Source of the DNA: Candidatus Aenigmatarchaeota archaeon
GTDB taxonomy: Archaea; Aenigmatarchaeota; Aenigmatarchaeia; PWEA01; JACRMZ01
Direction: 5' to 3'
Length of the DNA stretch: 17,284 nt
NCBI GenBank assembly: GCA_016219455.1
Contig: JACRMZ010000041.1
Location: forward strand, 1-17,284
Below are positions 2,152 through 9,414 of the stretch, in pieces. Below the pieces are notes generated by a model. That model saw nothing but the letters and a program-made list of their open reading frames with translations, was not told where the DNA came from and searched no databases. The translations under genes were made by a program, and so were the position numbers. Positions within the stretch are counted from its first letter, which is position 1; every line of letters starts with the position of its first letter.

Positions 2152-2226
2152 GCCGCTATAGCTCAGCGGTAGAGCGTCCGGCTGTTAACCGGAAGGTCGC
2201 AGGTTCAAACCCTGCTGGCGGCGCCA
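2152..2226 (+). tRNA. tRNA-Asn (anticodon GTT)
   Basis: Complete cloverleaf. The 7-bp acceptor stem is GCCGCTA (2152-2158) with TGGCGGC (2216-2222). The D stem is GCTC/GAGC (2161-2164, 2172-2175). The anticodon stem is TCCGG/CCGGA with loop CTGTTAA, so the anticodon is GTT at 2184-2186. The T stem is GCAGG/CCTGC with TTCAAAC loop. The discriminator is G2223 and CCA is encoded at 2224-2226. There is no intron. A strong hairpin element begins 3 nt after the CCA end, so the two may be cotranscribed. Confidence 0.97.
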
Positions 2227-2228
2227 AG

Positions 2229-2310
2229 CAGCCTTTTTCTCTACGGAAGCCGACAGACTGACGCATACCGAGTGTGCTTCATGTCCCGAGCATCCTAGTG
2301 AAAAACGCTG
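2229..2310 (+). repeat. Structured inverted-repeat element, copy 1
   Basis: An 82-nt stem-loop that begins 3 nt after tRNA-Asn. Pairs seen by hand: CAGC/GCTG (2229-2232 with 2307-2310), TTTTTC/GAAAAA (2234-2239 with 2300-2305), CTA/TAG (2241-2243 with 2296-2298), GGA/TCC (2245-2247 with 2293-2295) and GC/GC (2249-2250 with 2290-2291), separated by single mismatches and one bulge. The top is an internal loop with ACAGACTGAC (2253-2262), a hairpin GCATAC-CGA-GTGTGC (2263-2277), two bases, then CATGTCCCGA (2280-2289). The same two 10-mers, in the same arrangement around a different hairpin, recur on the minus strand within 8817-8960. It could be a small structured RNA or a repeat element. I do not recognise the family. 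The T5 run lies in the stem, so it need not act as a terminator. Confidence 0.6.
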
Positions 2311-2502
2311 GCGAAAATCAGTGTTTGTGGGTATTCAGGATTACCCTAAACTGAAGGTCTGGTCCTGCGAAGCTCAGTGAAAAGCGCTTCCTGCTCCATT
2401 GGGAGCATGCGGAAAGAACCCAGCCCTTAGACGTGAAAGGCCGGTTACAGCAGCGTTTTTGGCAAAAATCATCAATAAAAACTCCCGTGGGAAATATTGT
2501 TC
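2311..2502 (+). other. Structured intergenic stretch, candidate ncRNA
   Basis: No ORF here is supportable. Hand folding gives several hairpins: GGGTA/TACCC (2329-2333 with 2342-2346), and a three-way junction closed by CTGG/CCAG (2359-2362 with 2420-2423) and TCC.GC/GCGGA (2363-2368 with 2409-2413) that holds GAAGC/GCTTC (2369-2373 with 2386-2390) and TGCTCC/GGAGCA (2392-2397 with 2402-2407). An alternative hairpin pairs AACC and CCTT with AAGG and GGTT (2418-2446). A T5 run lies at 2456-2460. From 2460 to 2502 the sequence turns AT-rich and probably holds the promoter of the next gene. The strand of any RNA is not settled; I found neither RNase P nor SRP RNA signature motifs. Confidence 0.3.
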
Positions 2503-8386: not shown

Positions 8387-8812
8387 GTGAAAGTCAGGAT
8401 AAAGAGGATAGACGGTTCTTTGCCTCTTCCAACTTATGCAACTGAAGGCTCCGTTGCGTTTGACCTTTTTGCCAGGGAAACTACACGGATAAATCCCGGG
8501 GAAATTGCACTCGTCCCTGCGAACGTCATCATTGAAACGCCAAAAGGGTATGCGCTGATTCTGGCGCTACGCAGCTCGACTCCAAGGAAGAAAGGCCTGC
8601 TAAAACCTCATGGTGTCGGGATAATAGACCAGGATTATTGCGGCGAAGGCGACGAGCTCAAGATACAGGTGTATAATTTCACCGCAAAGGAAGTCATTGT
8701 CGACAAAGGCGAGAGGATAGCGCAGGGGATGTTCGTCAAGATAGAGAAGAACGAGTGGGAAGAGACTGCGAAGATGGGCAAGACGCGCGGCGGCTTTGGC
8801 AGCACAGGATAA
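8387..8812 (+). CDS. dut: dUTP diphosphatase (dUTPase)
   Basis: Hydrolyses dUTP to dUMP and diphosphate, keeping uracil out of DNA and feeding thymidylate synthesis. 141 aa, trimeric type, with all five motifs in order: SVAFDLFA (22-29), RSSTPRKKG (62-70), GVGIIDQDYCGE (76-87; Asp81 is the likely general base), GERIAQGMF (108-116) and RGGFGSTG (134-141). The start is GTG 8387, giving KVRIKRIDG as the first strand; no nearby ATG fits. A GAAGG at 8376-8380 lies 6 nt upstream, but the TATA distance suggests a leaderless or almost leaderless mRNA. It diverges from dcd and is convergent with the membrane-protein gene across the 8817-8960 element. Confidence 0.96.
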   Translation: MKVRIKRIDGSLPLPTYATEGSVAFDLFARETTRINPGEIALVPANVIIETPKGYALILALRSSTPRKKGLLKPHGVGIIDQDYCGEGDELKIQVYNFTAKEVIVDKGERIAQGMFVKIEKNEWEETAKMGKTRGGFGSTG

Positions 8813-8816
8813 TTTA

Positions 8817-8960
8817 TTTGATGAAACTTTTTTCTATCCGCAAGAAGGGAAGTTCGGGACATGGTGCACATGAAGCCAGTTTGACACATGTGCGTCAGTC
8901 TGTTGCCCATTCTTACCGGTCTATTATCCCCTCTATTTTTATGTGAAAAGTTTCATCAAA
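8817..8960 (-). repeat. Structured inverted-repeat element, copy 2
   Basis: A 144-nt element between the convergent dut and the membrane-protein gene. Perfect 15-bp terminal inverted repeats are TTTGATGAAACTTTT (8817-8831) and its complement (8946-8960). Inside, read on minus, a second imperfect stem pairs CCG/CGG (8919-8917 with 8840-8838), AAGAA/TTCTT (8914-8910 with 8846-8842) and GGG/CCC (8908-8906 with 8849-8847). Its top holds ACAGACTGAC (8903-8894), a hairpin with arms GCACATG and CATGTGC (8893-8887 with 8872-8866), two bases, then CATGTCCCGA (8863-8854). The same arrangement is seen in 2229-2310. It may act as a terminator for both neighbours, be a small RNA, or be a MITE-like element. 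No family is recognised. Confidence 0.65.
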
Positions 8961-8979: not shown

Positions 8980-9414
8980 TTACCAGAATAAAACAAAGTA
9001 AAAAAAGTATGCAAGAGTGTGAATAAGAGTGACGTATCCAATAACCAATGCACCACTTCTTGTCATCACTTTTGATGTATCCAATTTCTTAAAGTATTGG
9101 TTATCATTGTCCTTTAGAACACTCAACGAGGCCAAAAGCATTATAAAAGGGGAGAGTATTCCGAAGATTGCCACGGAAGGATTTTTTTGAAAAACACCCT
9201 TAGAGAACATCATAGTCACCAAAATTGTAAACCATATTATCAAGGTGCTGTAAAAAAAGTTACCGGATCTTAGTTTGCGAGAAGTCCAATGGTGGAAGTT
9301 GATAAACATCATTCTTCGTTTGCTAAGCATAATCAATCCCAAAAATATGGATAAAAGCACTACAGTTTCTGGGTCTCTGCGAAAAATATCAATTATTTGC
9401 GATAAATAATCCAA
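8980..9414 (-). CDS. Low-GC four-helix membrane protein, unknown
   Basis: No family recognised. 144 aa from TTG 9414, with four hydrophobic segments: VVLLSIFLGLIMLS, FFYSTLIIWFTILVTMMFS, VAIFGILSPFIMLLASLSVL and ALVIGYVTLIHTLAYFFYFV. Loops are short and basic (SKRRMM, TSRKLRSG). I prefer TTG 9414 because GGAG (minus, 9428-9425) lies 10 nt upstream; TTG 9423 is too close to it. The ORF open from ATG 9525 would run antiframe through the end of cbf5. Base use differs sharply from its neighbours: 16 G/C of 60 at 9181-9240 against 32 of 60 in cbf5 at 9841-9900. It begins 22 nt after the cbf5 stop and ends 20 nt before the structured element, so it looks like a late addition to the operon. Confidence 0.7.
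   Translation of the reverse strand: MDYLSQIIDIFRRDPETVVLLSIFLGLIMLSKRRMMFINFHHWTSRKLRSGNFFYSTLIIWFTILVTMMFSKGVFQKNPSVAIFGILSPFIMLLASLSVLKDNDNQYFKKLDTSKVMTRSGALVIGYVTLIHTLAYFFYFVLFW

What the first reader, a model, noticed from the sequence alone, without database searches (positions are those of the whole stretch)
2229..2310. New structured motif, copy 1, directly after tRNA-Asn
Seen directly: an 82-nt stem-loop with about 18 hand-counted pairs, whose apical loop is ACAGACTGAC / hairpin / NN / CATGTCCCGA. The same two 10-mers occur at 8854-8903 on minus in identical order and spacing to a hairpin, while the hairpin itself differs (GCATAC-CGA-GTGTGC against arms GCACATG and CATGTGC). Conserved loop strands with changed but still paired helices is the pattern of a functional structured RNA. 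A shared 13-mer (with GCA) plus a shared 10-mer in order is hard to get by chance. I do not recognise it as a known RNA class. Inference: a small RNA cotranscribed with the tRNA, a ribozyme or aptamer, or a structured mobile repeat.
Basis: partly seen in the sequence, partly recalled or inferred. Interest (0 to 1): 0.8.

Follow-up and report, generated by a model that had tools for sequence, protein, structure and literature searches.

The report
Archaeal hairpin repeats invading RNA genes
The odd stem-loop after this tRNA gene appears to be one copy of a family of short hairpin-forming repeats that, in some tiny archaea, is scattered through spacers and into tRNA, ribosomal RNA and RNase P RNA genes.

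Summary
Two window copies share a 13-mer and a 10-mer around different paired hairpins; 0 of 100 shuffled windows give such a pair. No Rfam family covers them. The exact core occurs only in this genome among 60 searched, but a covariance model finds the motif in 16 of 156 genomes of the phylum, this one included (probably Aenigmatarchaeota), with 37 and 42 non-overlapping copies in two genomes of one genus. A model trained on that genus alone recovers copy 1 (E 0.0055) but not copy 2.

The copies are palindromic hairpins with conserved feet and variable, still-paired arms. They nest, and differ in presence at orthologous spacers. They occur in tRNA introns, 23S rRNA, the 16S-23S spacer and RNase P RNA, and abut tRNA ends in near-fixed register. 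Best reading: a REP / Rickettsia-palindromic-element-like repeat, probably mobile, tolerated in stable-RNA genes. How the repeats spread is unknown; Y1 transposase presence does not track copy number.

The parts
2152..2226 (+). tRNA-Asn (GTT), with encoded CCA at 2224-2226
   Evidence: ARAGORN; Rfam tRNA at 2152-2223
2229..2310 (+). copy 1 of the hairpin element, starting 3 nt after the last base of the tRNA CCA
   Evidence: R1 match 2244-2296 at 48.6 bits (copy 1 was among R1's nine seeds); independent R2 match 2242-2298, 18.6 bits, E 0.0055
2229..2239 (+). outer stem, 5' arm CAGCCTTTTTC; holds the T5 run 2234-2238
   Evidence: sequence; pairs with 2300-2310
2253..2262 (+). conserved strand 1, ACAGACTGAC
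2263..2277 (+). variable apical hairpin GCATAC-CGA-GTGTGC
2280..2289 (+). conserved strand 2, CATGTCCCGA
2300..2310 (+). outer stem, 3' arm GAAAAACGCTG
8847..8912 (-). copy 2 core
   Evidence: R1 41.7 bits (copy 2 was among R1's seeds); NOT found by R2 at E<=1
8817..8960 (-). copy 2 with long outer stem: 15-bp arms 8946-8960 and 8817-8831
   Evidence: fold; spacer between the dUTPase-like ORF 8387-8812 (+) and an ORF on the minus strand ending at 8980

Best explanation
Copy 1 is a member of a family of short (core about 50-65 nt, up to about 150 nt with outer stems) palindromic, hairpin-forming repeats found in part of the phylum Aenigmatarchaeota. Each unit has conserved feet (roughly AAACUGA at the 5' side, UCUAGYU plus about 5 nt at the 3' side; AGACYGAC and CATGTCC in the window's genome), variable but complementary arms, and a loop that may hold another unit. 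Shown: many copies, both orientations, nesting, presence/absence at orthologous spacers, paired arms that differ between copies, and location in spacers, tRNA introns, at tRNA ends, in 23S rRNA and in RNase P RNA. Inferred: the units spread, or once spread, as (single-stranded) hairpins by an unidentified enzyme, preferring or surviving best at hairpin tips and RNA processing junctions, where an extra hairpin does little harm. In the window, copy 1 lies behind the T run that follows tRNA-Asn and probably has no RNA job of its own.
For: Copy number: 37 (G029) and 42 (G016) non-overlapping elements at E<=0.5; 16 of 156 phylum genomes, own included, at E<=0.001. Pairing: 14 of 22 pairs change on both sides, covariation 0.314 against 0.142 shuffled (0 of 500 as high) and at most 0.104 slid. 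Place: 54 of 66 elements intergenic by a crude ORF call; the other 12 fall in ORF calls, 10 of these under 125 codons. Turnover: one spacer filled in G016 and empty in G040, another the reverse. Nesting; in the window's genome the motif sits in the tip of a second repeated motif in C51 and C95, apparently also C25. RNA genes: 18 of 79 elements abut or lie in tRNAs, against a mean of 0.49 (maximum 4) in 2000 random placements, and 8 of 9 on the 5' same-strand side have one offset; 23S rRNA of G010 and 16S-23S spacer of G055; RNase P RNA of G023 (R1 match inside it) and, by eye, G016 and G029.
Against: No autonomous partner or mobilising enzyme identified; Y1_Tnp is not found in G029, G035, G040, G055 and G000. 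No target-site duplication recognised; the clean 'empty' site keeps foot-like letters, so it may be a deletion, and the other site is not clean. tRNAs of the same kind often keep the hairpin at the same place, which looks like function. The tie between the window copies and the rich genus is moderate for copy 1 (E 0.0055) and absent for copy 2 under R2. E-values from both models are rough.
Confidence: 0.66

Rival explanations
1. A functional structured RNA element: the hairpins mark or assist processing of tRNA and other stable RNAs (leader and trailer hairpins, RNase P RNA tip) and are held by selection on RNA structure.
For: 36 of 76 tRNAs in five genomes of one genus have a hairpin of at least 8 bp ending 4-14 nt before the tRNA (28 of the 36 at 9-11 nt), against 11, 10 and 9 in three windows further upstream and a mean of 5.7 (maximum 10) in shuffles. 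tRNAs with the same first ten letters in different genomes keep pairing: over 11 fixed positions 127 same, 45 double changes with both paired, 13 single compatible, 2 with a broken pair (only hairpins of at least 9 bp entered, so broken ones are under-counted, and the genome pairs are not independent).
Against: 61 of 79 elements are not within 60 nt of a tRNA that Rfam finds (some intron-bearing tRNAs are missed, and other RNA genes were not mapped). On the 5' side 5 of 14 are in the opposite orientation. Some tRNAs of the same kind lack the leader hairpin, e.g. G029:C2:52797. RNase P RNA, the usual 5' processing enzyme, is detected in G016, G023 and G029. The window copy lies after its tRNA and behind a T run.
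Confidence: 0.17
2. DNA-level palindromes without mobility (protein-binding or replication/termination sites) kept symmetrical by template-switch correction of quasi-palindromes (mechanism recalled), which mimics compensatory change.
For: Double changes outnumber single ones, 45 to 13, as arm correction predicts; near-symmetry lets both strands match; many copies lie in spacers.
Against: Does not readily explain nesting, presence/absence, the register at tRNA ends, or the kept bulged U and mismatch (17 of 27 rows unpaired at column pair 19/58).
Confidence: 0.13
3. Chance resemblance: the two window copies are unrelated to the repeats of the other genus and merely share short words.
For: R2 does not find copy 2 at E<=1 and finds copy 1 only at E 0.0055; the outer stems differ.
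Against: 0 of 100 shuffles; the same GACGCAYAC/GTRTGCGTC hairpin in copies of G000, G003, G010 and G055; R2 gives no hit at E<=1 in 88 kb of 29 other loci.
Confidence: 0.04

Closest known systems
Rickettsia palindromic elements (RPE) and CGTC-tagged REPs (PMC3733652, passages read; RPE insertion in RNA genes is recalled)
   Same: short palindromes, dispersed, inside genes as well as spacers; no dedicated transposase known for the CGTC type
   Different: archaeal host; no unpaired CGTC tag; feet AACUGA/UCUAGYU; in RNA genes and at tRNA ends; nested at hairpin tips
GTAG-type REP/REPIN mobilised by RAYT (Y1) transposases (PMC3733652 passages; PMC2817692 and PMC3116915 seen in a search listing only)
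   Same: hairpins with conserved feet, many copies, extragenic
   Different: Y1_Tnp presence does not track copy number here; no GTAG tag seen
Repetitive hairpin-forming / double hairpin elements of mitochondria (PMC2800124, passages read)
   Same: hairpins in spacers and in rRNA genes; types that differ by complementary substitutions
   Different: mitochondrial; the passages read do not mention a register at tRNA ends or nesting
Archaeal MITEs and PATEs (recalled; review PMC10969869 seen in a search listing only)
   Same: small non-autonomous repeats
   Different: no terminal inverted repeat of a known insertion sequence was looked for beyond Y1_Tnp, and no target duplication was recognised

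Membership tests
REP (GTAG type, RAYT-associated) | unpaired GTAG tag at one foot | tested here: not met
   feet read AACUGA / UCUAGYU in alignment A4; no conserved GTAG beside the stem
REP (GTAG type, RAYT-associated) | Y1 tyrosine transposase in genomes rich in the repeat | tested here: not met
   PF01797 not found in G029, G035, G040, G055; found in G016 and G023. The genomes are incomplete
CGTC-type REP / RPE | unpaired CGTC tag and CCA-like tail (PMC3733652) | tested here: not met
   CGTC occurs only as part of the paired stem GACGC/GCGTC
Rickettsia palindromic element-like behaviour | palindromic repeat present inside genes as extra hairpins | tested here: met
   23S rRNA, RNase P RNA, inside a tRNA and tRNA introns read by eye
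Mobile element | presence/absence at orthologous sites | tested here: met
   site B clean, site A not clean; direction (gain or loss) not settled
Mobile element | target-site duplication or mobilising enzyme | tested here: inconclusive
   no duplication recognised; of enzymes only Y1_Tnp was searched
Known Rfam RNA family | match at the family's gathering score | tested here: not met
   whole window: tRNA only; 2200-2520 at E<=10: four matches, none near a gathering score over the element
Bulge-helix-bulge archaeal intron | two 3-nt bulges separated by 4 bp at the element's ends | tested here: inconclusive
   one copy (L126) can be drawn so by eye, others looked at cannot (sequences); no program was run

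The most novel reading that the evidence does not exclude
A hairpin repeat of DPANN archaea that inserts by an RNA-guided or RNA-level route at the ends and processing junctions of stable RNAs and at hairpin tips, so that host RNA processing neutralises it, and that some hosts have since adopted as a general tRNA leader structure.
Probability: 0.12. Interest if true: 0.85.

Novelty: new variant of a known kind. Interest (0 to 1): 0.56.

Why it matters
To my knowledge palindromic repeats are best described in bacteria and mitochondria. A family in ultrasmall archaea that abuts tRNA ends in near-fixed register, sits in RNase P RNA and 23S rRNA, and nests at its own tips would give a natural experiment on how hairpins spread and how RNA processing tolerates them. 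It also warns that strong covariation among paralogous hairpins need not mean a functional RNA.

Tried and rejected
Known RNA class: Rfam scans named only tRNA, rRNA and RNase P at related loci. Virus-borne element: 0 hits for five patterns in the viral contigs (for motif 1; for motif 2). The exact core in one genome for each of 84,980 species: one Gammaproteobacterial match without an evident hairpin, judged chance by eye. Y1 transposase as driver: not correlated. Missing RNase P as the reason for tRNA leader hairpins: RNase P RNA is detected in G016, G023 and G029 (only G023 above the gathering score); no hit, under strict filters, in G035, G040 or G000, which are incomplete. Promoter spacing of leader hairpins: inconclusive. 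Kink-turn, hammerhead, integron attC and box C/D readings were considered by eye only and dropped. The first protein used for taxonomy, dUTPase, has Woesearchaeota as its commonest named relatives; I followed SecY, whose named relatives are mostly Aenigmarchaeota, so the phylum name is probable, not certain.

Literature: seven searches of an open-licence PubMed Central library listed no paper on such repeats in Aenigmatarchaeota; most subscription papers are not held. Passages were read in PMC3733652 and PMC2800124; other papers were seen as listings only.

Selection to keep in mind: R1's nine seeds included both window copies and hits picked by eye from weak blastn matches; one seed reached into a tRNA start. 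The 27 rows of A4 were chosen by eye from the 66 elements as having an outer stem, so pairing of helix 1 is inflated. In one search, 82 of the 101 rows were entered (19 opposite-strand repeats dropped by eye) and reduced to 79; a few contig lengths used for random placement were estimates and contigs without elements were left out. In one search, 77 of the 81 tRNA rows were used (dropped: one fragment, one at a contig edge, two below cut-off; one other below cut-off was kept). Shuffles keep single-base composition only.

Full report
What is in the window. The contig (17,284 bases; genome 866 kb in 121 contigs, 65% complete) is archaeal; named SecY relatives are mostly Aenigmarchaeota/Aenigmatarchaeota, although the dUTPase's named relatives are mostly Woesearchaeota. 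Copy 1 begins just after the encoded CCA of tRNA-Asn (2152-2226). An 11-nt arm on each side encloses inner helices, the two conserved strands and a small hairpin. Copy 2 lies in a convergent spacer on the minus strand inside a long inverted repeat. The fold of the copy 1 region is only modestly stable for its composition (z -2.07), and copy 2's best fold does not show the shared inner structure.

Where else it is. The exact double word is found in 1 of 60 genomes searched, the window's own, and once, without an evident hairpin, in a broad species collection. A blastn of 2228-2500 against relatives gave recurring weak hits to the hairpin part, chiefly in one genus, here g10, and reading these showed the same hairpin with the same kind of feet. 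A nine-sequence covariance model, R1, gave matches in 27 of 95 genomes (own included) at E<=1 and in 16 of 156 phylum genomes (own included) at E<=0.001 (strict filters). Genus g10 is rich: 42, 40, 42, 16 and 30 matches at E<=1 in G016, G023, G029, G035 and G040, palindromes partly counted on both strands. The window's genome has 25 matches at E<=10, of which five reach E<0.001. R2, trained on 27 g10 elements alone, recovers copy 1 (E 0.0055), G000:C38 (0.0026) and loci of G003, G010 and G055, but not copy 2, and gives nothing at E<=1 in 88 kb of 29 control loci.

Anatomy. In g10 the unit reads about CGUAAACUGA-arm-loop-arm-UCUAGCUGCAA. Arms are often two-tiered, and the inner tier is itself a unit, so units nest in the tips of units; outer and inner units may be on opposite strands. 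Over 27 two-tier elements 88.6% of cells are paired, 14 of 22 pairs have changes on both sides, and the covariation score is 0.314 against 0.142 in shuffles and at most 0.104 when slid. The 27 were picked for having an outer stem, so the outer helix is biased; the inner helix, not picked that way, still shows 12 of 27 and 7 of 27 rows changed on both sides at two pairs.

Places. By a crude ORF of 66 elements are intergenic and 12 fall in ORF calls, 10 of these under 125 codons; against neighbouring features the 5' side is same-strand in 25 and opposite in 29, the 3' side 32 and 20. In G029 and G016, 18 of 79 elements abut (within 60 nt) or lie in an Rfam tRNA, against 0.49 expected, and 17 of 39 tRNAs have one. 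On the 5' side 9 are same-strand, 8 of them with one offset, and 5 opposite; 3 lie at the 3' end. In five g10 genomes, 36 of 76 tRNAs have a hairpin of at least 8 bp ending 4-14 nt before the tRNA, 28 of them at 9-11 nt (windows further upstream 11, 10, 9; shuffles mean 5.7), and 22 of 75 have one after the tRNA (shuffles mean 5.7). Elements also lie in tRNA introns (read by eye; one inside an Rfam tRNA), in a variable part of 23S rRNA in G010, in the 16S-23S spacer of G055, and in RNase P RNA: an R1 match lies inside that of G023, and G016 and G029 have, by eye, element-like hairpins with different paired arms at the same helix tip. In the window's genome C82 repeats the arrangement of copy 1, an element straight after a tRNA CCA, and the motif sits in the tip of another repeated motif in C51 and C95, apparently also C25.

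Turnover. At one spacer the element is in G016 and not in G040; at another the reverse, with less clean edges. At the first, the empty site keeps letters like the feet, so loss of a hairpin is as possible as gain. Leaders of tRNAs with the same first ten letters usually keep a hairpin with altered arms: over 11 fixed positions 127 same, 45 double changes both paired, 13 single compatible and 2 with a broken pair (hairpins under 9 bp had been left out, and the pairs of genomes overlap). So many double and so few single changes may mean swapping or template-switch correction of arms rather than slow compensatory drift; covariation therefore does not by itself prove an RNA function.

Mechanism and verdict. 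The pattern fits a palindromic repeat that spreads, or once spread, as a hairpin and survives where an extra hairpin is harmless. The enzyme is unknown: Y1 transposases are not found in several of the rich genomes, and no other enzyme was searched. A function in tRNA maturation is the main rival; it fits the leaders of g10 but not the many free copies, nor the window copy, which lies after its tRNA and behind a T run. The kind is known (REP, RPE, mitochondrial hairpin elements); the host, the register at tRNA ends and the nesting make it, as far as the searches go, a new variant.

Noticed in passing
window 2327-2365 and G000 loci L028, L029, L030, L031, L098, L102: A second repeated motif, roughly GTGGGG-n-TCAGGATTACCCTAAAAC-[variable hairpin]-GCGGTTTGG, in 7 places of the DNA held from this genome (the window copy has a degenerate 3' half). 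The conserved strands can pair as two helices, perhaps a pseudoknot (by eye); in L028 and L098 an ATG follows. No Rfam match for the window copy; copies printed.
   Followed up: partly
window 2229-2317 and G000 loci L032, L033, L034: A third repeated motif, CAGCCTTTT(T)-[variable]-AAAACGCTGGCGAAAA; its arms form the outer stem of copy 1, so the motif of the finding sits in its loop.
   Followed up: partly
window 2301-2461: AAAAACGCTG (2301-2310) is also a perfect complement of CAGCGTTTTT near 2452-2461, so the spacer could fold in a second, competing way.
   Followed up: no
G000:C29, locus L031: A tRNA 3' end is repeated about 200 bases on, with the second motif between the two, like a tiny element integrated at a tRNA gene (read by eye).
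   Followed up: no
L054 (G010), LSU sense about 979-1106: A further stretch of about 128 nt in the 23S rRNA gene with no counterpart in G055, besides the hairpin element at 727-759; perhaps an intron.
   Followed up: no
L077, L123, L126 (one tRNA gene of g10, type not called): The presumed intron of this tRNA has box C-like GTGATGA letters and differs among three genomes by a single or a nested hairpin unit at the same place.
   Followed up: partly
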